From the IMG/VR virus record IMGVR_UViG_3300035698_003997, positions 1 through 20,439 of that record: a DNA stretch of 20,439 nucleotides; one strand, 5' to 3'. Shown in pieces: positions 3,106 through 12,871 of this stretch. Position 1 is the stretch's first letter. Each line of letters starts with the position of its first letter. This DNA is from a virus. The position numbers and the translations under genes were made by a program. The notes beneath the pieces were generated by a model. The model worked only from the letters and a program-made list of their open reading frames with translations. It did no database searches and was not told where the DNA came from.

Positions 3106-3135
3106 AAAAGAGGTCTCAATTGAGACCTCTTTTTT
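3106..3135 (+). terminator. Rho-independent terminator after the small basic protein gene
   Basis: A perfect 30-base palindrome (arms 3106-3120 and 3121-3135) with GAGGTCTC at its core, flanked by A's on the left and a T run to 3135. In RNA it gives a stable GC-containing stem with a tight turn at TCAATTGA and a U tail. Its symmetry and flanking A/T runs mean it could also act on minus-strand transcripts. It separates the basic-protein unit from the DNA polymerase gene. Confidence 0.9.
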
Positions 3136-3161
3136 CTATATTACGATACGGAGGTTATTTA

Positions 3162-5846
3162 ATGTATAGTTATGTTCACTACAGGTGTGGCCGAAACGCA
3201 ACAGAGCCATGGAAAGGAGAAATCCTTTTAAGAACCTGGGATAATGATGGCAAGTCCATTATTAAAACGTTCCCTCATAAGTCAAAACTCTATCACGAAA
3301 ACGAACAAGGTGAATACACCAGTGTTTATGGTAACAGTTTAACGAAGAAGACATTTGACAACATCTTTGAAAAGAAACGTTGGAAAGATGATTATAATGT
3401 AAGAAAGACATATGGTGAATTTAATCCAGATATGGAATTCATCCAAGACACATACTATGGATACAACAAGGACCCAGAGTTCTTCGACACTAAACTTCGT
3501 ATCCAAGTAATCGATATTGAAACAGCTGTTCCACGCGGCGCAGGTCAAGAATCATTCGACTGTTCACTTACCCCTTATCCAATTACCCTAATTGGAATCT
3601 ACGACTCTCAAACTGATTGTAAATATATCTTTATGAATATCAGTGATGCTTGGTATGATAAGCCTAAAGAAGAATGGCCATGGAAAGATACTAAGAAAGT
3701 TAAGTACTTCATCTTTAAGGACAACTATGCTAAGATGTTGATTTCCTTCTTGCATTGGTGGAAGAACAATACACCAGACGTAGTTACAGGTTGGAACTCT
3801 AGATTGTTTGACTGGCCTTACGTTATTAATGAGTGTTATAAGCAGCTTGGTTTAGCGCCTGGTGGCGGTGACTTAGTAGCTGAATATCTTTCTCCAATGG
3901 GAGAACTAATTGAACGACAAGAAAGAACTGGGTTTGATGGTGAACATAAAGTTTATTATTTGATTGTTGGTGTAAACATCCTTGACTACAAAGAGCTTTA
4001 TAAAGAAGGCTATGGTGAAAAGTCATTACCAAACCATAAGCTTGAAACGGTATGTCAACACGAACTCAATATTGGTAAGACACCAAACCCTGAAACTTCA
4101 TTCCATGCCTTCTATACTAAGCATTGGGAATTGTTCGTAAGCTATCTCGAAACAGATATCCAACGTCCATGGGAACTTGAACAGAAGCTTAAGTTCATTG
4201 AGCTTGCTAAGACGGTAGCATATACCTCTTTGATTCCACTTGAAAAGGTACTTGTGACGACTCCAGTCGTAATTGGTGCATTGAATCAGCAAGTCAAAGA
4301 AGATGATCGCATCATGATTACTAATACTGGAATCGAAGATGTAGCTGAAGATTATGAAGGTGGTCACGTTATGGATCCTATTGCTGGTATTTATAATGAA
4401 GGTATTTTCTCTATTGACTTGAACTCTCTTTATCCAAACATTATCATTACGCTTAACCTTTCAAATGAAACTTACGTTGGTAAGATCACTGAAGAAGATG
4501 AAAGCTATGTAACGATCAATATCAATGGAACGATCAAACGACTTACTATTGTTCAGTTCAATCAGAAACTTAAGCCACGTGTAAATAGAGCAGCAAATGG
4601 AGCTCTATTCCTTAAGGCAACCGAAAAGGAAGGTGTAATTCCTAAGTTCCTTAAGAAAACGTATAATGCTCGTCGTGATACTAAAAACGAGATGCTTGCA
4701 ACATATCGTAAGATTGATGCACTTAAACAAGCCCTTAAGACATGTGAAGATAAGGACAAGAAAAAGCAGATCAGAGATGGAATTGAACTACTTGATTCTC
4801 AAGCTAAACAGCTTAATGCTAATCAGATGGCCTTCAAACTTCTTATGAACTCGCTATATGGCCTGTTCGCTTCACCTTATTCTCCTATCTACAATCTCGT
4901 TCTTGCTGAAGCTATTACGTTATGTGGGCAAGATATTATTAAGACTAGTGGTGAATATGTCAACGAGCTTGCAGTAGAAATGCTTGGTATTGATTATCCA
5001 GTGACTCTTTACTCTGATACTGACTCCGCTTATGTGAATGCAGAACCATTCCTTAAAGCTCAGTTTGGTGATAAACTCAAGTGGACTCGTGAATCTGTTC
5101 AAAAGTATTGTGATTATGTTGATGCTGCTATTGTTCCTAAGATTAATGAAAACTGTGCTCGTATCGTTAAAGATAACTATTGGTCTGATGATTCTCATAT
5201 TGAGTTCAAACGTGAAACTTTATGTTCACATGGTGCCTTTGTAGCTAAGAAGCGTAATTGCCTATTAGTTAGAGATGATGAAGGAACTCCATGTAAGAAA
5301 TGGAAGTACACTGGCTTAGATGTTAAGAAGAATGAGTATACCCAAGATACTAAGGATGCTATTTCAAATGTAATTGAAACGATGATCTTAGAGAACTGGG
5401 ATAACGCTCAATTCAGTTCAAATATCTATAAGCTATGGGAAGACTTCCAGACTCGCTCCCCTGAGTCCGTTGGTATCTATAAAGGATATAATACGTACAA
5501 AGAATACTATGGTGGCTTCAGGAGCGAACCTAGAACGTTAGCACACGTACGTGGACATCATTATCATAATGATATTATCAAACAGCGAAACATTGATATT
5601 GCTGAGTTACGCTTCCAAGAGAAGATGCAGTTCGTATACCTTAAGCCTACGCTTAATGAATATCAGATCGATGTAATTGCTTTTGACTTCGCTTGGCCTG
5701 AAGAATTCACTCCGATATTTGAAATTGACTATAAAGAAATGTTTAATCGTACTATAATTAAGCCTCTAGATAGATTCATTCAAATGAAGCACTATGTTGT
5801 GCCTAACGTTGAACAAAAAGAAGTGTTTGACATTAACGAGTTATAA
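3162..5846 (+). CDS. 43: Family B DNA polymerase (T4 gp43-like) with 3'-5' exonuclease
   Basis: Replicative DNA polymerase, 894 residues from ATG 3162 (T4 gp43 is 898). The ATG follows CGGAGG; an upstream TTG at 3120 lies inside the terminator and is rejected. Exonuclease motifs: D-I-E (D118, E120), N-S-R-L-F-D (D217) and L-E-T-D (D332). Polymerase motifs: A, D-L-N-S-L-Y-P (D419, SLYP 422-425); B, K-L-L-M-N-S-L-Y-G (from K559); C, Y-S-D-T-D-S (D619 and D621). All catalytic acids are present. The last residues, V-F-D-I-N-E-L, are a plausible clamp-binding tail. Motif A has N-S-L-Y-P-N where many relatives have x-S-L-Y-P-S. It would work with the clamp, gp32-like protein and helicase encoded later in the window. 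It heads the long plus-strand chain that includes the proposed base-modification genes. Confidence 0.97.
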   Translation: MYSYVHYRCGRNATEPWKGEILLRTWDNDGKSIIKTFPHKSKLYHENEQGEYTSVYGNSLTKKTFDNIFEKKRWKDDYNVRKTYGEFNPDMEFIQDTYYGYNKDPEFFDTKLRIQVIDIETAVPRGAGQESFDCSLTPYPITLIGIYDSQTDCKYIFMNISDAWYDKPKEEWPWKDTKKVKYFIFKDNYAKMLISFLHWWKNNTPDVVTGWNSRLFDWPYVINECYKQLGLAPGGGDLVAEYLSPMGELIERQERTGFDGEHKVYYLIVGVNILDYKELYKEGYGEKSLPNHKLETVCQHELNIGKTPNPETSFHAFYTKHWELFVSYLETDIQRPWELEQKLKFIELAKTVAYTSLIPLEKVLVTTPVVIGALNQQVKEDDRIMITNTGIEDVAEDYEGGHVMDPIAGIYNEGIFSIDLNSLYPNIIITLNLSNETYVGKITEEDESYVTININGTIKRLTIVQFNQKLKPRVNRAANGALFLKATEKEGVIPKFLKKTYNARRDTKNEMLATYRKIDALKQALKTCEDKDKKKQIRDGIELLDSQAKQLNANQMAFKLLMNSLYGLFASPYSPIYNLVLAEAITLCGQDIIKTSGEYVNELAVEMLGIDYPVTLYSDTDSAYVNAEPFLKAQFGDKLKWTRESVQKYCDYVDAAIVPKINENCARIVKDNYWSDDSHIEFKRETLCSHGAFVAKKRNCLLVRDDEGTPCKKWKYTGLDVKKNEYTQDTKDAISNVIETMILENWDNAQFSSNIYKLWEDFQTRSPESVGIYKGYNTYKEYYGGFRSEPRTLAHVRGHHYHNDIIKQRNIDIAELRFQEKMQFVYLKPTLNEYQIDVIAFDFAWPEEFTPIFEIDYKEMFNRTIIKPLDRFIQMKHYVVPNVEQKEVFDINEL

Positions 5847-5854
5847 GGAGTAAT

Positions 5855-6067
5855 ATGATAGGATATGTAATTAGTTATTTTGTTATAGGGATTATCTTTG
5901 GGTTGGCAACAACCTTTAATGTCTGGTCCCAATATATTAATGCAGACCCTATGTCTAAAGCAATGGCCCACATAGATGGATACGGATGGTGGCAAACTTA
6001 TGCCTTTATCTTTATTACAAGGTGTCTAGGGTGGCCTGTTTATTTAGTAATGAGGTTCATGGCCTAA
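5855..6067 (+). CDS. Small membrane protein, function unknown
   Basis: A 70-residue protein with a good ribosome binding site (AAGGAG) 8 bases after the polymerase gene. It has an N-terminal membrane segment (about residues 3-22, I-G-Y-V-I-S-Y-F-V-I-G-I-I-F-G) and a second one near the C-terminus (about 47-67, Y-A-F-I-F-I-T-R-C-L-G-W-P-V-Y-L-V). A short polar loop with a D-P-M-S-K and H-I-D-G-Y-G-W-W motif lies between them. I recognise no family; the pattern fits small phage inner-membrane proteins. Its stop shares one base with the start of the phosphatase gene (TAATG), so translation is coupled. Real gene likely; role unknown. Confidence 0.6.
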   Translation: MIGYVISYFVIGIIFGLATTFNVWSQYINADPMSKAMAHIDGYGWWQTYAFIFITRCLGWPVYLVMRFMA

Positions 6068-6639
6068 TGATTATATTCTGTAGACATTATAAGACACAAG
6101 CTAACGTTGATCATATTGTTCAGACTTATACTGACAATGGTATCCTTGATATGCCTAAGGAAGTTAAAGAAGCTTGGGACGAAAACATACCTCTCCAATT
6201 TGCTATGGATGAGGTATGGGTATCTCCACTAAAACGAACTCAACAGACTGCCGAAGCATTAGTAGGTAAATGGGATTACCTATCTCATTTTGTTACTGAG
6301 ACACCTTTGCGAGCCATTGAAGGTCAACCTGTAATCCTTGAGGATGATGATTTTCCAGACGATGATGAAACGATGCAAGACATTGAATATTCACGAGCTA
6401 ACGTGATTAAGTTCTGGGATGCTCTTGATAAAGATAAAGATATAATTGTCTTCTCACATGGTATCGTAATGAGGTTACTGTATTACCATGTAATGAATAT
6501 TCCGTTCCCTGATAACTTCCCTGACTCATTTAGGACGTACATAGCACCTATCTCTATGCTCGTCTTTGATAATCTTGATACTAAACCAACCTGTGAATTT
6601 ATTCATACAACTAAGGATCTAATCCAATATGAAAAGTAA
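6067..6639 (+). CDS. Histidine phosphatase superfamily protein
   Basis: A 190-residue protein from ATG 6067, which overlaps the previous stop by one base. A longer frame opening at 5986 runs through the neighbour and is rejected. Family marks: F-C-R-H-Y-K-T-Q-A-N (R6, phosphohistidine H7, T10, N13), V-S-P-L-K-R-T-Q-Q-T-A (R57), and F-S-H-G (H131). The canonical RHGET is RHYKT here, which still keeps the catalytic R-H pair. A D/E-rich insertion lies at about 92-106. Members hydrolyse phosphate esters of sugars, nucleotides or proteins through a phosphohistidine. Linked to sugar-activation genes, it may remove a sugar or nucleotide phosphate, for example arabinose-1,5-bisphosphate or a modified-base intermediate. 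The adjacent HAD protein is an equally good candidate, so I cannot choose the substrate. Confidence 0.85.
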   Translation: MIIFCRHYKTQANVDHIVQTYTDNGILDMPKEVKEAWDENIPLQFAMDEVWVSPLKRTQQTAEALVGKWDYLSHFVTETPLRAIEGQPVILEDDDFPDDDETMQDIEYSRANVIKFWDALDKDKDIIVFSHGIVMRLLYYHVMNIPFPDNFPDSFRTYIAPISMLVFDNLDTKPTCEFIHTTKDLIQYEK

Positions 6640-6982
6640 AATCGTCTACATAGCAGTTCCATTTTCTGACCCAAGTATGAAAGTGAAGCTTGAACGTTAT
6701 TCAATGGTCAATAAAGTATGTGCTAAGCTAATGAATGAAGGTGTAATTTTGTTTTCACCAGTAACTATGGGATGGTCTATTGCTGAAGCTACCCCAGATG
6801 GATTACCTACTGATTGGAAATATTGGCAGCGTACGTGTACCGAAATGGTACGTGCTTGCTATAAGATTATAGTCGTAATGATGCCAGGTTGGGAATCTTC
6901 TGTTGGGGTCCAGGCCGAAATATCTTTAGCTAAAGAATATGACCTCGAAGTTGAGTACATTGATCCTAAGGACTTCATTTAA
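6629..6982 (+). CDS. DUF1937 / nucleoside 2-deoxyribosyltransferase-like protein
   Basis: A 117-residue protein starting inside the end of the phosphatase gene. Features of the deoxyribosyltransferase-like fold: N-terminal strand Y-I-A-V-P-F-S-D (relatives read Y-x-A-G-P-Y/F-S), an F-S-P-V-T-M-G-W segment near residues 42-49, W-K-Y-W-Q-R-T-C, and the C-terminal M-M-P-G-W-E-S-S-V-G-V-Q-A-E-I (about 84-98), whose Glu is the expected nucleophile or acid. The MPGWExSxGxxxE pattern is typical of DUF1937/DUF4406-type phage proteins. Related enzymes cleave or transfer the base of deoxynucleosides or (d)NMPs; MilB-type members hydrolyse (hydroxymethyl-)CMP. Next to a dNMP kinase and glycosylation genes, a role in nucleotide-pool editing is plausible, such as removing unmodified dCMP. 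The family is likely; the activity is inferred. Confidence 0.7.
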   Translation: MKSKIVYIAVPFSDPSMKVKLERYSMVNKVCAKLMNEGVILFSPVTMGWSIAEATPDGLPTDWKYWQRTCTEMVRACYKIIVVMMPGWESSVGVQAEISLAKEYDLEVEYIDPKDFI

Positions 6983-7536
6983 TGTTCTACGATATCAACT
7001 ACGAAGTTGAAGCAACTGACGAACTAATTGAGGAAATTGAAAAAATGTTTTTTGATCACGGAATAGATATCAACTCACTAGACCCTAAGAAAACAATTGT
7101 GGTTGATGTAGATGATACTATCTTAACAACTGAAAATCGTGACTACCCTAACTCTGTACCTAATAAGCCTTTAATCGAAAAAATTAATAAGCTATTTAAT
7201 ACTGATTGGACCGTCATTTATTTTAGTGCACGAGGCCACGTAAGTTTTAACAATGATGCGTACCATGTTGAAGGTGAAGTTTACCCTATTATGGAACAGT
7301 GGATGGTTGATAACAATGTCCAGTATGACCATTTGATCCTTGGTAAGCCTATAGCTGCATATTACATCGATGATAAAGCAATTCGACCTGATGAGTTTCT
7401 AGAATTAAATCTTGATGAAGATAAAGAATACCCTTTCTGTCATATGACTAATGTAAATGATGACTGGGTTTATGTATGCCAATATTGTGGTGCTGAAAGC
7501 TGTCCAGACTGTGGCGGAAGATGTGGATGTGAATAA
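6982..7536 (+). CDS. HAD-superfamily phosphatase with Cys-rich C-terminal tail
   Basis: A 184-residue protein, start overlapping the previous stop by one base. HAD motifs: I, V-D-V-D-D-T (D42 and D44); II, Y-F-S-A-R-G (S82); III, G-K-P (K122); IV, Y-I-D-D-K-A (D130, D131). The layout resembles small capsular-polysaccharide-type phosphatases. A helical N-terminal extension of about 36 residues precedes the core. After residue 150 a compact tail carries six cysteines (166, 169, 174, 177, 181, 183: C-Q-Y-C, C-P-D-C, C-G-C), probably a zinc ribbon, which is unusual for this family and might contact DNA or a partner. By analogy with GmhB in heptose activation, it could convert arabinose-1,5-bisphosphate to arabinose-1-phosphate. 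That substrate is inference from neighbours. Confidence 0.8.
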   Translation: MFYDINYEVEATDELIEEIEKMFFDHGIDINSLDPKKTIVVDVDDTILTTENRDYPNSVPNKPLIEKINKLFNTDWTVIYFSARGHVSFNNDAYHVEGEVYPIMEQWMVDNNVQYDHLILGKPIAAYYIDDKAIRPDEFLELNLDEDKEYPFCHMTNVNDDWVYVCQYCGAESCPDCGGRCGCE

Positions 7537-7537
7537 G

Positions 7538-8089
7538 ATGAAGAATCGTAAAATTATAATTATTGAAGCACCTGATCGTTTAGGCAAAGATACTTTCCTT
7601 AAATACATGAAGTCACGTGATCCTGGTGAAGAAGCATATCACGTCTATTTTAAAGATGATGTGAAGCCGCCTGATTATCGTAAAGTCGATGAGTTTAATA
7701 CTTGGCTCAAGAATTACCTCAAGACTGAAATGGTTAATATGGCAGGTATTAATAACAACATCGTTATTGCTCGTCTGTTTACGTCTGACTACGTTTATTC
7801 AAATCTCTTTGATAGACAGTCATATGCTAACAACGTGTATGAATTCCTACGTTTAGAGGGCTTTGAGTTCTATCAGATCACCTTTGTTTATAAGTCATAT
7901 GAAGACTATAAGGAACGTTGTATTAAAAGTGGATCAGATGTTGAATATGATTGTATGGAATTTGCTGAATTGCAAGCACTCTATTACAATTCTATCTATA
8001 ATAAAGTCATCCCAACAACTATCGAACGTACCGATACGATAGACCACGAATTCACATATGAACAAATCGAGAACTTGATTTATGGTTAA
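7538..8089 (+). CDS. Thymidylate-kinase-like deoxynucleoside monophosphate kinase
   Basis: A 183-residue P-loop protein from ATG 7538, one base after the previous stop; an upstream in-frame ATG at 7457 is inside the HAD gene and rejected. The N-terminus is strand I-I-I-I followed by E-A-P-D-R-L-G-K-D-T (10-19), matching the E-G-x-D-x-x-G-K-S/T P-loop of dTMP kinases (Leu replaces the usual Gly/Ser before G-K). A segment V-I-A-R-L-F-T-S-D near residues 70-78 resembles the D-R-x/L-x-S-x substrate loop. Length is near the family's 200. It would phosphorylate a dNMP to dNDP; in T4, gp1 does this for hydroxymethyl-dCMP. In this chain it may act on a modified or ordinary dNMP for phage DNA synthesis. 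Specificity cannot be read from the sequence. Confidence 0.75.
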   Translation: MKNRKIIIIEAPDRLGKDTFLKYMKSRDPGEEAYHVYFKDDVKPPDYRKVDEFNTWLKNYLKTEMVNMAGINNNIVIARLFTSDYVYSNLFDRQSYANNVYEFLRLEGFEFYQITFVYKSYEDYKERCIKSGSDVEYDCMEFAELQALYYNSIYNKVIPTTIERTDTIDHEFTYEQIENLIYG

Positions 8090-9107
8090 TTTTGATTTAA
8101 ACACGAAGACGTTTCCAGCTTCTCTCCTTGATGGCAAACGTATTCTTTATATCCCAGTCGTAAGTATGCGATCACACGATACTGGGATATATGATTTAGC
8201 CTGCGATGGGAATGTTAATCGAATGATTGCATTCTTCAACCTCTATAATTACGAGCAGTTGACTATCACATTGCCTGAAGCAGTCGAGAACAGATCGTTC
8301 ATCGAAGACCGCCTAAGGTGTTCCTTTAGACATATTGATGCATATGGAAAAAACGCCAATGAAACCAGAAGCTCTAGGTTAGCTTGGTATAATTTCTTTT
8401 ATGATGACATCCCTTGGTTCAATTATGATGTGATTATATTCGAACCTAATATAATTGGCTCATTCTATATTCCTCCACGTATTGATGCTTATTTCTGGAG
8501 TCCAGTATCTCGTACAACTAAAGGATCACCTTCATTCATTACAGAGTTCGATATTCAAGATGTTAAAACTCATCTAAAGTATCCAATGATTGTTGCTTCT
8601 AATAATCAAGAAGCCTATTGGAATATGGTTCCTGGTTGTGAAGTATATCAACACAATTTGAATTGGATACCTGAAAAGGAAGAATTTAAAACTCCTACCC
8701 ATCTCGCTAAGAATCCTATTTTCTTACCATTCAGACTTACTGATACTGGATATCGTATCCCAGAGATAATGGATGCCTTAATTGAATTAGCTGATGAAGG
8801 TGAAGAATTCACTGTATATTACACTTCACCAAACGATGCTCCATTTGAATATGAAGTTCCTAATATAAAATGGCCTAAAGATCGTGATTATTATTATAAG
8901 ATGCTAACTGAGAAACCAATCATCATATACCTTGAAGACCCAGATGAAATCCTGCACACGAGCGTTCTAGAATTTATCGAATACGATTGTAGATTGATTT
9001 ATTTAGAGAATGAGTTGTTCAGACATAAAACCACCGAAGGTCAAATTGGTGATGTCTACGAAGATTTGAAATACCTTATAAGGAAAATGTTAAATGGAAA
9101 AAGTTAG
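8082..9107 (+). CDS. Putative GT-B-fold glycosyltransferase
   Basis: A 341-residue protein overlapping the kinase gene by 8 bases. I see no close named family, but the plan fits GT-B: an N-terminal Rossmann-like half to about residue 195, then N-P-I-F-L-P-F-R-L-T-D near 212-222 opening the second half (compare 'ilfvGRL...K'), F-T-V-Y-Y-T-S-P (about 244-251) as the next strand, I-K-W-P-K-D-R-D-Y-Y-Y-K-M-L before P-I-I-I-Y-L-E-D-P-D-E-I-L-H-T-S-V-L-E-F-I, which mirrors the 'PS..EgfG.svlEAma' donor-binding helix, and R-L-I-Y-L-E-N. No signal peptide or membrane helix, so it acts in the cytoplasm. Beside sugar-activation genes, transfer of the activated sugar to DNA bases is the best inference. 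Alternatives are transfer to a host glycan or a virion protein. Confidence 0.55.
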   Translation: MVNFDLNTKTFPASLLDGKRILYIPVVSMRSHDTGIYDLACDGNVNRMIAFFNLYNYEQLTITLPEAVENRSFIEDRLRCSFRHIDAYGKNANETRSSRLAWYNFFYDDIPWFNYDVIIFEPNIIGSFYIPPRIDAYFWSPVSRTTKGSPSFITEFDIQDVKTHLKYPMIVASNNQEAYWNMVPGCEVYQHNLNWIPEKEEFKTPTHLAKNPIFLPFRLTDTGYRIPEIMDALIELADEGEEFTVYYTSPNDAPFEYEVPNIKWPKDRDYYYKMLTEKPIIIYLEDPDEILHTSVLEFIEYDCRLIYLENELFRHKTTEGQIGDVYEDLKYLIRKMLNGKS

Positions 9108-9708
9108 TAAAATCATTAAAATGAACGAGTTGCTTTTAGAAGTACTCGCGACAAAGGATAACCAAGACACAATTGACAATATGGCTAGACGTTGGGATCG
9201 TGGCTTTGTATTCTGTGGAGTTGGTAAGAATTGGTACATCTGTGAAAAGGTTGCTAAGACCTTTATCTCAATGGGAATTCCCGCTCAGACACTTGATCCA
9301 ATCCATGCTCTTCATGGTGACATTGGTATGCTCAATGACCAGAACCTAGTCTTTATCAGTAAGTCTGGAACTACTGTCGAAATGGTAAACACAATGAAGT
9401 ATCTTATTCAGCTTCGTGAAAAGCATGTCATTGACTGTGCCTTCTTCAATATCAATCTTAATAAACATGCTGAGAGTAACGACTTATGTGATTATATTAT
9501 CACTAACGTACTTGATACAGAAGTCTATGAGATGGATGAGAAGAACATTATTCCATCATTATCTATTGATATGATCCAAATGCTTCTAGACTATATAGGA
9601 GTTGAGATATTTGAAACTCATTTACATTTACTTAAACGTTACCCATTCAATCATCCAGGTGGTTCAATAGGTGAACAGGTAGGATCAGGAGAACTATTGA
9701 ATGCGTAA
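9094..9708 (+). CDS. kpsF: SIS-domain D-arabinose 5-phosphate isomerase (KpsF/KdsD/GutQ type)
   Basis: A 204-residue single SIS domain, start overlapping the glycosyltransferase gene by 14 bases with AAGGAAA upstream. It matches KdsD/KpsF closely: F-C-G-V-G-K (K45, equivalent to KdsD K59), H-A-L-H-G-D-I-G-M-L (H74), V-F-I-S-K-S-G-T-T-V-E (S91, G92, E96) and the C-terminal N-H-P-G-G-S-I-G, whose His187 corresponds to the catalytic His193 of E. coli KdsD (H-P-G-G-A-L-G). The tandem CBS domains of the 328-residue bacterial enzymes are absent, as in short SIS-only isomerases. The reaction is ribulose-5-P to arabinose-5-P. T4-like phages with arabinosylated cytosine (RB69 type) are known to carry such a gene, which links this one to DNA arabinosylation. 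The other known use, Kdo synthesis, would need kdsA-type genes that are not here. Confidence 0.88.
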   Translation: MEKVSKIIKMNELLLEVLATKDNQDTIDNMARRWDRGFVFCGVGKNWYICEKVAKTFISMGIPAQTLDPIHALHGDIGMLNDQNLVFISKSGTTVEMVNTMKYLIQLREKHVIDCAFFNINLNKHAESNDLCDYIITNVLDTEVYEMDEKNIIPSLSIDMIQMLLDYIGVEIFETHLHLLKRYPFNHPGGSIGEQVGSGELLNA

Positions 9709-11230
9709 TGAAGAAAGCAAAACTAATCTAGTATTTGTTGCCGGTGGTTTAAATACAAGGTTCAATGAATATAACAGAATCCCAAAGTTGTTATTACCAT
9801 ATGAGGATAATGATTCTGTTCTTATCTGGAACCTTAAAATGATTGATCACTGTGATGCTAATATCATTATACATCGTCAGTACTACGAGATGGTCCAGAA
9901 TTACGTCAAGGTGAACAATCTTGAAGTATCTGTATTTCCTATTGATAATTCAGATGGATCGTACTGGGCTATCCATGAAGCTTCTCATGATGGTATGTTC
10001 CCCCAAGAAGATATTGTATTCGTTTGGTCTGATATCATATTCAAAGAACCTATTGCCTTCTCTCAAATGGATGAGGTAGTTATTGGTACTAGAGAAGGTG
10101 ATTATCGATACTTTGCTGATAGTGATCGAATTAGAAACATAAACAAAGCTCACATGGAAACTGGTAATGTTCCAGGTGTATATTACTTCCCCACGTTTGA
10201 AGGTTTCACTACAGCCGATATGAATAAAAACAACTATGACTTAGTTGACTTTATTAGAGATCATGTTCGTGAGTTCGATACATGGCCTTTACCTGAAATT
10301 ACTGAATTTAGAGACATCGATATTTATATTAAAGAAATGAACTTTGATCCTATTGGAACCTCTCCTAGGTTCTTCAATAAACTAATCTTTGATGGAAATC
10401 AGTTAACAAAGCACTGTGTTGATCCTAACTATATTAATCTTATTCAAACCGAAATGGAGTGGTATAAAACTGCTAAGCGACTTGAAATTAATGCTATTCC
10501 GGAAATTTATCATTATGGTCATGATTATATAATCATGGAATATCTTGAAGATTCTGAACCACTTGATACATATCTTCGACGTACTAAAGACTTTGATGTC
10601 TTTAATGAATTCGTTCTTCCTTCTGTTCAAGGAATTCATAGTCAATGGAAAGAATCAGTAGACTCAATGCGTATGCTCAAAGATACTAAGATTGAGTTCT
10701 ATGACAAAGTTCTTAATCGAGTTGGCTCTATTGATAAGATGATCCTTGATTTTGATTATAGTGAGTTTAATGAAGTAATCCATACAGCATACAAGATGCT
10801 TATCTCTAAGCTTGATATTCGTTATGGACATGAACCATTCTATGTGTTTACTCATGGTGACTTGAACGGCTCTAACACAATGATAAACCCTAAAACAGGT
10901 AAGGTGAAGTTCATTGATCCACGCGGGTACTATGGTGAAACTAAAATGCTTGGTCTTGCTGAATATGATATGGCCAAGCTTTACTATTTCTTGCATGGTT
11001 ATGATCACTTCAATAATGGATTCTATCTCTATGCAGATAAAGACAACTTCGATGCACCTGAATGCATTTATAAGCCATCTCGTCTTCAGGATCCTATTAT
11101 GGAAATCATGCTCGGATTTATCTATGTTAATCTATCATCATACATCAGTAATAATGTGATGAAGGCAAATATCGCATATCATCACGGTATGAATATCTTA
11201 AAGGAAGCAATTAATAATGAACAGTTTTAA
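9701..11230 (+). CDS. Bifunctional nucleotidyltransferase - APH-type sugar kinase
   Basis: A 509-residue fusion. The N-terminal domain (about 1-220) is a GT-A-type nucleotidyltransferase: V-A-G-G-L-N-T-R-F (G15, G16, R20) followed by P-K (P28, K29), and F-V-W-S-D (D111) as the metal/nucleotide Asp. The C-terminal domain (about 225-505) is an aminoglycoside-phosphotransferase/choline-kinase fold: hinge I-I-M-E-Y-L (277-282), catalytic T-H-G-D-L-N-G-S-N (H385, D387, N392) and metal-binding K-F-I-D-P-R-G (D406). Such fusions occur in capsule gene clusters, where kinase and transferase act in sequence on one sugar. Here the kinase would make arabinose-1,5-bisP from arabinose-5-P, and the transferase would make NDP-arabinose from arabinose-1-P after a phosphatase step. 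Domains are clear; substrates are inferred from the adjacent kpsF-type gene. Overlaps by 8 bases upstream and 14 downstream. Confidence 0.85.
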   Translation: MRNEESKTNLVFVAGGLNTRFNEYNRIPKLLLPYEDNDSVLIWNLKMIDHCDANIIIHRQYYEMVQNYVKVNNLEVSVFPIDNSDGSYWAIHEASHDGMFPQEDIVFVWSDIIFKEPIAFSQMDEVVIGTREGDYRYFADSDRIRNINKAHMETGNVPGVYYFPTFEGFTTADMNKNNYDLVDFIRDHVREFDTWPLPEITEFRDIDIYIKEMNFDPIGTSPRFFNKLIFDGNQLTKHCVDPNYINLIQTEMEWYKTAKRLEINAIPEIYHYGHDYIIMEYLEDSEPLDTYLRRTKDFDVFNEFVLPSVQGIHSQWKESVDSMRMLKDTKIEFYDKVLNRVGSIDKMILDFDYSEFNEVIHTAYKMLISKLDIRYGHEPFYVFTHGDLNGSNTMINPKTGKVKFIDPRGYYGETKMLGLAEYDMAKLYYFLHGYDHFNNGFYLYADKDNFDAPECIYKPSRLQDPIMEIMLGFIYVNLSSYISNNVMKANIAYHHGMNILKEAINNEQF

Positions 11231-12320
11231 AATTGGTTACAACTTCGAACCTGAGTTAATCAGAGCAATCGAATTTATGAATCGTAAATGGGGTGCTCAA
11301 TCTAAAGTAGTTGAAGTGTATAGTTCTGATCGTACTCATGCTTATGTAAGTGCTCGTCCAGATTTTCGAATTCAAGATGTAGGTACAGATGATCTTAAAT
11401 CACATGTACGTGCTCTTAAAGACATTGGCGTAACATTCAACTACACAATGAACACAATCAATCCTGGATCTAAAGCTACTCTTCAACATGAAGGACTTGC
11501 TGATGATATTAGAGCATGGGTTGATATACTTGTAAATGATATTGGAGTTGGACGTATTACTGTAGCTAACCCTATGGTACTTGAATTGATTCGTTCAGTT
11601 AGCGCTGATATCCCTATTGAAATTTCTACCATAGCTCACATCGATTCCCTCTCTCAGATTAAGTTCTATAAAGAGAAATACAATATCGATAAGATTTGTG
11701 GTAATCTAATGTTGAACCGGAACTTCACTAAACTTGAAGGTATGGCCACCTGGTGTAATGATAATGGTGTCGTCTTAGACCTGATGACTAACGAATTCTG
11801 TGGAGTGGGTTCCGGTTCATATGCTACCCATTGCATCTATCGAGATTCATGTTACATTGCGCATGCTTCAGACAAATCACAACATGATGCTGAATCTATG
11901 GATTGCTATCCTATGAAACGTTGCATGAACTCACGTGATATTGATGCTGCATGTTGGTTGAAAACTAGATTCATTAGACCTGAAGACCTTAAAGCTTATC
12001 GTGATATTGGTATCCATCACTTTAAAATTACTGGACGTACAGGGACAACAGAGTATATCAAGAGAGTTGTCGAAGCTTATATGGCTGAATCATACAAAGG
12101 TAACCTTCTCGGCCTCTGGAAGAACCTAGACACAATCTATAACGGTAAAGATGAAGATCAGACTGATAATGAAATATTTGTAGACAATTCTAAACTTGAT
12201 GGCTTCCTTGACCAATGGATCCATAATGATTGGCGTTGTGACGAGAAAAACTGTGGCGTTGCTGAAGGCCCAAATGCATGCAACTACTGTAATGACTTTT
12301 GGGAAAGGAAAATGAAATAA
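11217..12320 (+). CDS. U32 peptidase-family Fe-S protein (UbiU/UbiV/RlhA/TrhP-like)
   Basis: A 367-residue protein of the U32 family. The family's C-terminal core is present: W-L-K-T-R-F-I-R-P-E-D-L-K-A-Y-R-D-I-G-I followed by H-F-K-I-T-G-R (268-274) and V-V-E-A-Y (284-288), plus a TIM-barrel-like N-terminal half. Conserved-type cysteines for a [4Fe-4S] cluster lie at 195, 206, 212, 230, 236 and 246 (N-E-F-C-G, H-C-I-Y-R-D-S-C, D-C-Y-P-M-K-R-C). A C-terminal set (C341, C346, C355, C358) could bind a second metal. Characterised relatives hydroxylate ubiquinone precursors without O2 (UbiU-UbiV), C2501 of 23S rRNA (RlhA), or wobble uridine in tRNA (TrhP), using prephenate in the RNA cases. In a chain of sugar-activation genes it may hydroxylate a pyrimidine to create the acceptor for glycosylation; RNA modification is the main alternative. 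Confidence 0.82.
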   Translation: MNSFKIGYNFEPELIRAIEFMNRKWGAQSKVVEVYSSDRTHAYVSARPDFRIQDVGTDDLKSHVRALKDIGVTFNYTMNTINPGSKATLQHEGLADDIRAWVDILVNDIGVGRITVANPMVLELIRSVSADIPIEISTIAHIDSLSQIKFYKEKYNIDKICGNLMLNRNFTKLEGMATWCNDNGVVLDLMTNEFCGVGSGSYATHCIYRDSCYIAHASDKSQHDAESMDCYPMKRCMNSRDIDAACWLKTRFIRPEDLKAYRDIGIHHFKITGRTGTTEYIKRVVEAYMAESYKGNLLGLWKNLDTIYNGKDEDQTDNEIFVDNSKLDGFLDQWIHNDWRCDEKNCGVAEGPNACNYCNDFWERKMK

Positions 12321-12871
12321 TGAATTCAATGAACACAATCGAGCACTATACTGCTCCAGGAAACACCTTTATCGCTAAACCTATCTCTATGAAGAAGGAA
12401 TATGCAGGTATCATTTTACCAGATGAAGCCGTAGAGAAAAGCTTCTTTGAGATTATCGATCTTGGTAATCAGTTTGACCATAAAGAGTTCAAAATCGGTG
12501 ACGTTGTTCTCGTTAATGGTAAAGGTGGCGACCGTATCGATATTCAAAATGGTGAATATTGGATCTATCCGGTAACGATGGTTGCTGCAAAGATCATTGA
12601 TGATGAAGTAATCCCGATAAATAGATTCATCACCCTAGAAGTTAACGAGGAAGATGAAGTCAGTGACTATGGTGGTATTCTTCTCTATAAAGAGAAGACT
12701 GATACTGACATTGTTTTCTTGAAGGTCATCCGAGCTGGTAACGGTAACATTGACTTATTCCCAGGTATGAAAGTTGTACTTGAGAAGCAGCATTGTATTC
12801 CTGTTAAAACTAAAGAACATTCCATTCTCTTGACCTCTGAAGTAGTTGTTCTGGGGATAGTTGAGGATTAG
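12320..12871 (+). CDS. Tandem GroES-like co-chaperonin
   Basis: A 183-residue protein; ATG 12320 overlaps the previous stop by one base, and the in-frame TTG at 12299 is rejected. It reads as two Cpn10 domains in a row. Domain 1 (about 10-95) has F-I-A-K-P, a mobile-loop-like K-E-Y-A-G-I-I-L-P-D-E-A (about 25-36), E-I-I-D-L-G, and K-I-G-D-V-V-L-V-N with G-G-D-R (about 59-73). Domain 2 (about 100-183) repeats it more loosely: R-F-I-T-L, D-Y-G-G-I-L-L-Y-K-E, V-I-R-A-G, F-P-G-M-K-V-V-L and S-E-V-V-V-L-G-I. GroES is about 97 residues and T4 gp31 111. Phage co-chaperonins replace GroES on host GroEL to fold the major capsid protein; a duplicated subunit changes the symmetry with the seven-fold GroEL. 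Domain 1 is confident, domain 2 less so. Confidence 0.75.
   Translation: MNSMNTIEHYTAPGNTFIAKPISMKKEYAGIILPDEAVEKSFFEIIDLGNQFDHKEFKIGDVVLVNGKGGDRIDIQNGEYWIYPVTMVAAKIIDDEVIPINRFITLEVNEEDEVSDYGGILLYKEKTDTDIVFLKVIRAGNGNIDLFPGMKVVLEKQHCIPVKTKEHSILLTSEVVVLGIVED

What the first reader, a model, noticed from the sequence alone, without database searches (positions are those of the whole stretch)
8082..9107. Unfamiliar GT-B-like protein as the candidate DNA glycosyltransferase
The two-lobed pattern and the donor-site-like C-terminal helix suggest GT-B, but I see no clear match to T4 alpha- or beta-glucosyltransferases. Its place between the dNMP kinase and the isomerase gene makes it the best candidate to transfer the activated sugar. 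It could be a divergent or new family of base-modifying transferase.
Basis: inference. Interest (0 to 1): 0.7.

Follow-up and report, generated by a model that had tools for sequence, protein, structure and literature searches.

The report
Divergent phage DNA arabinosyltransferase candidate
This gene most likely encodes the phage enzyme that attaches a five-carbon sugar to hydroxylated cytosine in the phage's own DNA as a shield against bacterial defences; it is a very divergent member of a little-tested family already suspected of this role.

Summary
The ORF at 8082-9107 (+, 341 aa) is real, and its predicted fold is GT-B (best Z 18.2; pLDDT 75, pTM 0.76). It is not a new family: it is a remote (18-28% identity) member of phrog_3891, found by tblastn in 349 of 50,697 phage records and including RB69 ORF047c/046c. 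A 2026 paper places a putative first DNA arabinosyltransferase in that RB69-type sugar-gene cluster. The window encodes a matching donor pathway: KdsD/GutQ-like isomerase, HAD phosphatase, fused nucleotidyltransferase-sugar kinase; also a dNMP kinase and a U32 protein. I infer transfer of D-arabinose from NDP-arabinose to 5-hydroxycytosine. Two things stand out. In 51 of 51 other loci with upstream sequence a thymidylate-synthase homologue (the reported 5-hydroxy-dCMP synthase) lies just upstream; here it is absent from the 20 kb. And Thanatos-1 TH1_063, published as a UDP-xylose pyrophosphorylase, belongs to this family, while its neighbour TH1_060 carries the nucleotidyltransferase domain; that assay lacked a hydroxylated acceptor. 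No demonstrated transferase activity of a family member was found in the sources read.

The parts
8082..9107 (+). GT-B pentosyltransferase candidate, 341 aa, phrog_3891 family
   Evidence: phrog_3891 E 7.9e-18; predicted GT-B fold; family alignment
8163..8213 (+). N-lobe signature, residues 28-44 (SMRS..T..Y....DGN): Y37, D42, G43, N44 invariant, S28-S31 in 26 of 27 clusters
   Evidence: loop after first strand and start of first helix in the model
8727..8753 (+). C-lobe signature P216-F-R218-L-T-D221-x-x-Y224 (P216, R218, D221, Y224 invariant)
   Evidence: after C-lobe strand 212-215
8823..8834 (+). C-lobe signature T248-S-P250-N251 (T248, P250, N251 invariant), after strand 244-247
8955..8972 (+).
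   Evidence: H292 and E297 invariant in 27 of 27 clusters; helix in model
7538..8089 (+). dNMP (thymidylate-like) kinase; mechanical ORF 7457-8089, likely start at the Met codon 7538
   Evidence: phrog_761 E 3.8e-8; local profile
6982..7536 (+). HAD phosphatase of the capsule-biosynthesis EcbF/BcbF type; proposed to remove the 5-phosphate
   Evidence: TIGR01689 E 2.2e-22, below its cutoff; phrog_1238 E 4.2e-21
9094..9708 (+). SIS-domain arabinose-5-phosphate isomerase (KdsD/GutQ-like)
   Evidence: phrog_5670 E 2.9e-32; KpsF/GutQ E 1.4e-15, below cutoff; family profile hits solved A5P isomerase 2xhz
9701..11230 (+). Fused sugar-1-phosphate nucleotidyltransferase (about residues 5-215) and APH-fold sugar kinase (about 218-505)
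   Evidence: phrog_4098 E 9.2e-67; model pLDDT 77; Z 19.2 LicC, Z 17.6 glucosamine kinase
11217..12320 (+). U32-family protein, proposed prephenate-linked pyrimidine C5-hydroxylase
   Evidence: PF01136 E 1.7e-12; phrog_5757 E 3.6e-117; 46-49% identical to phage relatives

Best explanation
The protein is a GT-B glycosyltransferase that transfers a pentose, most likely D-arabinose, from a nucleotide sugar onto the 5-hydroxyl of 5-hydroxycytosine (the first sugar) in the phage's DNA. Proposed order, all inferred from gene content: ribulose-5-P to arabinose-5-P (isomerase, 9094-9708); phosphorylation at C1 (kinase half of 9701-11230); loss of the 5-phosphate (HAD, 6982-7536); activation to NDP-arabinose (nucleotidyltransferase half); transfer to the base (8082-9107). 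Shown here: ORF, family membership, predicted GT-B fold, predicted folds and families of the partners. Inferred: the sugar, the acceptor, the DNA (not nucleotide) level, the donor nucleotide, and that the hydroxylated base exists in this phage.
For: Fold: best Z 18.2, 752 of 999 compared chains Z >= 8, the rows shown being glycosyltransferases of the GT-B kind, with one UDP-GlcNAc 2-epimerase. Family: P0001 alone against the other 29 members, 99.7% probability, E 4.7e-27. Partners in the window. Association: 14 of 14 phage loci that I chose and 37 of 37 IMG/VR loci with enough upstream sequence have the reported 5-hydroxy-dCMP synthase homologue just upstream. GT number against sugar number: RB69 has one family member plus one ORF003c-type gene, Acj61 one plus two; published DNA of an RB69 relative holds mono- and di-arabinosyl-dC and other phages up to three (PMC13390438, passages).
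Against: The window has no TS homologue in 20 kb, so the acceptor's source is not seen. A family member, TH1_063, was reported to make UDP-xylose from UTP and xylose-1-P and not to transfer xylose to plasmid DNA, dCMP, dCTP or cytosine (PMC12838424 section 10). The family occurs without the donor genes: nucleotidyltransferase-kinase in 10 of 20 records, isomerase in 7 of 20, so the sugar cannot be read from family membership alone. Thanatos DNA was reported to carry a deoxypentose (PMC12838424). The first Glu of an EX7E motif is not conserved.
Confidence: 0.68

Rival explanations
1. Same sugar transfer, but on the mononucleotide: the enzyme glycosylates 5-hydroxy-dCMP before the dNMP kinase and polymerase use it, so the sugar enters DNA with the nucleotide.
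For: In most relatives the gene lies between the 5-hydroxy-dCMP synthase homologue and a dNMP kinase; in the window it overlaps the dNMP kinase.
Against: Operon order is weak evidence; T4 b-gt, whose enzyme acts on DNA, occupies the same place next to gene 42. PMC13390438 calls the enzymes DNA arabinosyltransferases (a hypothesis there too).
Confidence: 0.15
2. Sugar-1-phosphate nucleotidyltransferase (UDP-pentose pyrophosphorylase), as published for the family member TH1_063.
For: LC-MS and tandem MS of UDP-xylose made with purified TH1_063; TH1_060 was in the same screen and no product with it is reported (PMC12838424 section 10). TH1_063 is a family member: phrog_3891 E 2.6e-108, 18 of 18 invariant residues kept.
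Against: Predicted fold is GT-B. The nucleotidyltransferase domain is in the neighbour gene: TH1_060 hits 21 NCBIfam models, mostly nucleotidyltransferases, TH1_063 none; the window's counterpart of TH1_060 folds as one, Z 19.2. The figure legend names a no-enzyme control only; an E. coli pyrophosphorylase carried along is possible (inference).
Confidence: 0.06
3. A GT-B transferase with another acceptor, such as a surface polysaccharide, protein or lipid of the host.
For: The nearest solved folds are mostly GT4-like enzymes with small-molecule, lipid or glycan acceptors. A fold says nothing of the acceptor.
Against: Constant pairing with a nucleotide-modifying TS homologue, usually a dNMP kinase, between polymerase and recombinase genes in the phage relatives.
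Confidence: 0.05
4. Same enzyme, different sugar: ribose, deoxypentose or another pentose rather than arabinose.
For: Nucleotidyltransferase-kinase without isomerase in PSTCR6, JS98 and AmPh_EK29; Thanatos DNA reported to hold a deoxypentose (PMC12838424), and no isomerase hit among the nine Thanatos-2 cluster proteins scanned.
Against: The window does carry the isomerase, whose family profile hits a solved arabinose-5-phosphate isomerase at E 1e-19.
Confidence: 0.15

Closest known systems
RB69 ORF047c/046c and phrog_3891 (Acj61 p079, LC53, 92A1, KARL-1 homologues)
   Same: Sequence family, predicted fold, operon partners (isomerase, nucleotidyltransferase-kinase, HAD, dNMP kinase, U32)
   Different: Only 18-28% identity to the window protein; relatives have the TS homologue directly upstream, the window does not
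Shewanella phage Thanatos-1 TH1_063 (published as UDP-xylose pyrophosphorylase)
   Same: Same family, all 18 invariant residues, similar cluster context
   Different: 21.6% identity; published activity is not transfer; reported sugar a deoxypentose; no isomerase hit among the nine proteins scanned in its near-identical sister Thanatos-2
RB69 ORF003c (phrog_8302), putative arabinosyltransferase of Thomas et al. 2018
   Same: Proposed role in DNA arabinosylation; GT-B predicted in that paper; a 366-aa protein of Shigella phage SSE1 is a Foldseek hit of the window model (that it is an ORF003c homologue is recalled)
   Different: No sequence link found (low power); different locus, two copies in Acj61, not seen in the window
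T4 alpha- and beta-glucosyltransferases
   Same: GT-B enzymes that glycosylate modified cytosine in phage DNA; b-gt lies in the same genomic place
   Different: Separate PHROGs (phrog_2888, phrog_7922); no profile match (low power); sugar is glucose from host UDP-glucose

Membership tests
phrog_3891 / RB69 ORF047c family | Profile match over most of the length | tested here: met
   E 7.9e-18, residues 20-304; hhalign 99.7%, E 4.7e-27 against the other 29 members
phrog_3891 / RB69 ORF047c family | Family-wide invariant residues | tested here: met
   18 invariant positions in 27 clusters that include the window protein
phrog_3891 / RB69 ORF047c family | TS homologue directly upstream (a usual context, not a defining feature of the protein family) | tested here: not met
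   0 of 1 for the window against 51 of 51 others
phrog_3891 / RB69 ORF047c family | Sugar transfer to 5-hydroxycytosine | not testable with these tools
   Needs an assay; no demonstrated transfer found in the papers read
GT-B glycosyltransferase superfamily | Two Rossmann-like lobes with the active site between them | tested here: met
   Predicted model; Z 18.2, rmsd 3.8, 299 residues to 6kih; 752 of 999 chains Z >= 8
GT-B glycosyltransferase superfamily | Donor-binding C-lobe motif (EX7E or equivalent) | tested here: inconclusive
   H292 and E297 invariant, but the first Glu of EX7E (E289) is not conserved
T4 alpha-/beta-glucosyltransferase families | Sequence-profile homology | tested here: inconclusive
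   No signal, but the AGT-BGT pair gave none either, so the shallow profiles lack power
Sugar-1-phosphate nucleotidyltransferase (published label of TH1_063) | Nucleotidyltransferase fold and family match | tested here: not met
   Window model is GT-B; 0 NCBIfam families for P0001 and for TH1_063, while TH1_060 hits nucleotidyltransferases
RB69 ORF003c-type second arabinosyltransferase (phrog_8302) | Profile match | tested here: inconclusive
   P0001 hits phrog_3891, ORF003c hits phrog_8302; hhalign none, low power

The most novel reading that the evidence does not exclude
This phage lineage makes its hydroxylated acceptor base without the thymidylate-synthase homologue: the U32 protein encoded in the same operon, related to the prephenate-linked pyrimidine C5-hydroxylation factors TrhP/RlhA, hydroxylates cytosine (in DNA or as nucleotide), and the GT then adds arabinose. 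It would be a second route to glycosylated 5-hydroxycytosine and a DNA role for the U32 family. L055 (U32 with a DAHP synthase and a dNMP kinase, no TS homologue in 16 kb) and the chorismate mutase beside U32 in LC53 and Thanatos fit this.
Probability: 0.2. Interest if true: 0.8.

Novelty: new member of a known kind. Interest (0 to 1): 0.42.

Why it matters
Sugar-hypermodified cytosine protects phage DNA from restriction and some CRISPR systems, yet for 5-hydroxycytosine arabinosylation the enzyme adding the first sugar rests, in the sources I could read, on gene position. This remote member (18-28% identity) narrows the family to 18 invariant residues that can be mutated, extends it to a deep T4-like lineage (polymerase 29% identical at best), and shows that it can stand apart from the TS homologue. 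It also exposes a conflict worth a bench test: the published UDP-xylose pyrophosphorylase TH1_063 belongs to this transferase family, while the nucleotidyltransferase domain sits in its neighbour TH1_060.

Tried and rejected
Close-relative scan of viral contigs with P0001 alone: 1 pattern match, none confirmed; with the window polymerase: no match, so no longer contig of this virus was found and the presence of a TS homologue elsewhere in its genome stays open. Scan of genome contigs with alignment A2: 23 stretches, none confirmed, so no bacterial relative was found. PDB sequences with profile A1: only a chance hit, E 0.61. hhalign against single T4 AGT, T4 BGT and ORF003c sequences and small profiles: no signal, and no power, since AGT-BGT and AGT-ORF003c gave none either. 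T4 AGT/BGT are not among the 50 rows shown; that absence excludes nothing. A simple GxGxxR...PK regex for nucleotidyltransferases found 6 of 7 fusion proteins, missed the window's own, and 0 of 30 GT members; I do not rest on it. PTm5, a Tenacibaculum phage with the nucleotidyltransferase-kinase and a TS homologue: no GT-family hit among the 7 proteins scanned. Considered and dropped: that the protein is a new fold or new family. Kept only as a weak rival: a transferase with a non-DNA acceptor.

Rows and limits: the 14 phage-collection loci in the adjacency count were picked by me out of 349 records; several IMG/VR loci are the same phages as these (for example L025 and L005, L026 and L008, L028 and L015, L042 and L007, L043 and L012), so 51 is not a number of independent genomes; one of 38 IMG/VR loci (L021) was left out of that count for lack of upstream sequence. 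Two of the nine unnamed virus records are only about 10 kb, and none of the nine is known to be complete.

Full report
WHAT IS THERE. The ORF at 8082-9107 (+) encodes 341 aa. It lies in a tight same-strand run: HAD phosphatase 6982-7536, dNMP kinase ending 8089, this gene, SIS isomerase 9094-9708, a 509-aa fusion 9701-11230 and a U32 protein 11217-12320, most starts overlapping the previous stop. The surrounding genes are T4-like replication genes (polymerase 3120-5846; UvsX-, gp41-, gp32- and gp45-like ORFs are named by me from the translations, not searched). G000 is a 20,439-base virus record, so the rest of the genome is not seen.

FAMILY. P0001 hits no Pfam or NCBIfam model. It hits phrog_3891, function unknown, E 7.9e-18 over residues 20-304. 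tblastn finds 349 of 50,697 phage records at E <= 0.01, 276 covering at least 80% of it, all below 60% identity; those listed are mostly Straboviridae, with Rhizobium Pootjesviridae as well. Thirty sequences from the window and IMG/VR (27 clusters at 80% identity) share 18 invariant residues: Y37 D42 G43 N44 P65 Y88 N91 A92 R96 P216 R218 D221 Y224 T248 P250 N251 H292 E297. The window protein alone against the other 29 gives hhalign 99.7%, E 4.7e-27. In a tree it is a lone long branch. No bacterial relative was found.

FOLD. The model (A2, 30 sequences) has mean pLDDT 75.4 and pTM 0.76; residues 1-7, 143-152 and 315-322 are below 50. Foldseek gives 198 PDB chains at E <= 0.001; nearly all of the 50 shown are glycosyltransferases of the GT-B kind (one is the UDP-GlcNAc 2-epimerase MnaA). 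VIA-align: best Z 18.2 (6kih, rmsd 3.8, 299 residues), 752 of 999 chains with Z >= 8, model residues 14-341 spanned. In the viral library the best hit is the KARL-1 phage homologue, and RB69 ORF047c and ORF046c appear as well. The invariant residues fall mainly just after strands or at helix starts facing, by the usual GT-B plan, the cleft (inference from the element list; I had no coordinates).

NEIGHBOURS AND PATHWAY. The isomerase matches phage 'arabinose 5-phosphate isomerase' phrog_5670 (E 2.9e-32) and, below cutoff, KpsF/GutQ; its family profile finds the solved arabinose-5-phosphate isomerase 2xhz at E 1e-19. The 509-aa fusion (pLDDT 77.3) is a sugar-1-phosphate nucleotidyltransferase at about 5-215 (Z 19.2 to LicC; the profile hits HddC, a 6-deoxy-heptose pathway protein) joined to an APH-fold kinase at about 218-505 (Z 17.6-17.9 to glucosamine kinase and FN3K). 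The HAD protein resembles capsule-biosynthesis phosphatase EcbF/BcbF (E 2.2e-22, below cutoff). Together they resemble the logic of NDP-heptose synthesis (isomerase, C1 kinase, phosphatase, nucleotidyltransferase; recalled), here giving NDP-arabinose. This pathway is inferred; PMC13390438 also says the arabinose precursor is unclear (passages).

WHAT IS PUBLISHED. Thomas et al. 2018 (PMC6024577, abstract and passages) found arabinose in RB69 DNA and proposed ORF003c as transferase; ORF046c/047c are not named in the held main text. A 2021 survey lists RB69p047 with function n/a among genes presumed to act in this modification (PMC8056088, passages). PMC13390438 (2026, passages) reports 5-ara-dC and 5-ara-ara-dC in an RB69 relative, 5-hydroxy-dCMP made by a TS homologue, and two putative arabinosyltransferases, one inside the sugar-gene cluster, one between rIIA and the topoisomerase gene. 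ORF003c sits in the second place and the phrog_3891 gene in the first; that the paper's 'first' is ORF047c/046c is my inference, as its figure is not held. Two key works (Mahler et al. 2025; bioRxiv 2025.06.16.659550) are not held, so a demonstrated activity there cannot be excluded. PMC13216743 (passages) cites an arabinosyltransferase Aat in Bas46; I did not test which family Aat belongs to.

GENE COUNTS. Of 20 records behind my loci, 2 carry ORF003c-type genes (RB69 one, Acj61 two), 10 the fusion, 7 the isomerase, 5 U32. All 20 carry the GT by selection. The GT with its TS homologue thus occurs without the donor genes in some records (Rhizobium phages; unnamed, possibly partial records), where the sugar may be another or come from elsewhere. 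One family member plus zero, one or two ORF003c-type genes fits one, two or three sugars, but only the RB69 relative's di-sugar is tied to a genome in what I read.

THE MISSING PARTNER. With local profiles, the TS homologue lies within 1.2 kb upstream on the same strand in 14 of 14 chosen phage loci and 37 of 37 IMG/VR loci with at least 800 bases upstream; the window has none anywhere in 20 kb. So the acceptor-making enzyme is either elsewhere in the genome or replaced. The U32 protein is the most conserved member of the module (46-49% identity, against 25-29% for the fusion and the isomerase). U32 proteins TrhP and RlhA are needed for prephenate-linked C5-hydroxylation of uridine in tRNA and cytidine in rRNA (PMC6599085, abstract and passages; that paper says direct catalysis is unproven). 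In LC53 and Thanatos-1 a chorismate mutase gene directly follows U32, and in L055 a DAHP synthase does (E 1.5e-41). Searches joining chorismate mutase or U32 with hydroxycytosine and phages returned no paper that connects them. Against: U32 was not found in 15 of 20 GT records, so it is not generally needed.

THE THANATOS CONFLICT. TH1_063 (MT457552.1, 55459-56361, directly after TS homologue TH1_062) is 99.7% identical to TH2_066, which matches the GT family at E 6e-106; TH1_063 hits phrog_3891 at E 2.6e-108 and keeps 18 of 18 invariant residues. PMC12838424 (abstract, sections 9-10 and passages) reports UDP-xylose formation by TH1_063 and no transfer of xylose to plasmid DNA, dCMP, dCTP or cytosine. 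By sequence, TH1_060 is the nucleotidyltransferase. None of the acceptors tried is 5-hydroxylated and UDP-xylose may be the wrong donor, so the negative transfer result does not count strongly against the transferase reading. The positive pyrophosphorylase result is unexplained by my reading; a contaminating host enzyme or a side reaction are guesses.

VERDICT. GT-B: supported by prediction. DNA (or nucleotide) pentosyltransferase, arabinose in this phage: likely (0.68), not demonstrated. New family: no. The finding is a very divergent new member of a known but, in what I could read, biochemically unproven kind, with one unusual trait, the lost link to the TS homologue.

Noticed in passing
window 11217-12320; L010:4953-5297; L080:8601-8858; L055:9384-10130: The phage U32 'peptidase' keeps company with shikimate-pathway genes (chorismate mutase in LC53 and Thanatos-1, DAHP synthase in L055), which fits a prephenate-linked hydroxylase.
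   Followed up: partly
L080:6001-6903 and L080:3041-4726: Published UDP-xylose pyrophosphorylase TH1_063 belongs to the GT-B family of this finding; the sugar nucleotidyltransferase domain is in TH1_060.
   Followed up: yes
L055:6511-7782: A 423-aa protein with no Pfam or PHROG match lies between a nucleotide-sugar epimerase and a dNMP kinase next to U32; possibly another transferase.
   Followed up: no
window 5986-6639; L079:7412-8116: A histidine-phosphatase gene lies upstream of the module in the window, and one lies beside the fusion and TS homologue in Tenacibaculum phage PTm5.
   Followed up: no
window 6629-6982: DUF1937/DUF4406 protein resembling phage nucleoside 2-deoxyribosyltransferases, at the head of the module.
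   Followed up: no
window 12299-12871: Cpn10 (GroES-like) domain protein, PF00166 E 4.4e-7.
   Followed up: no
window 3120-5846: DNA polymerase about 29% identical to the best of 2,549 matching phage records: a deeply separate T4-like lineage.
   Followed up: partly
L004:24597-25497: In the RB69 reference record the family member is split into ORF047c and ORF046c, while IMG/VR L037 holds a homologue as one 299-aa frame.
   Followed up: no
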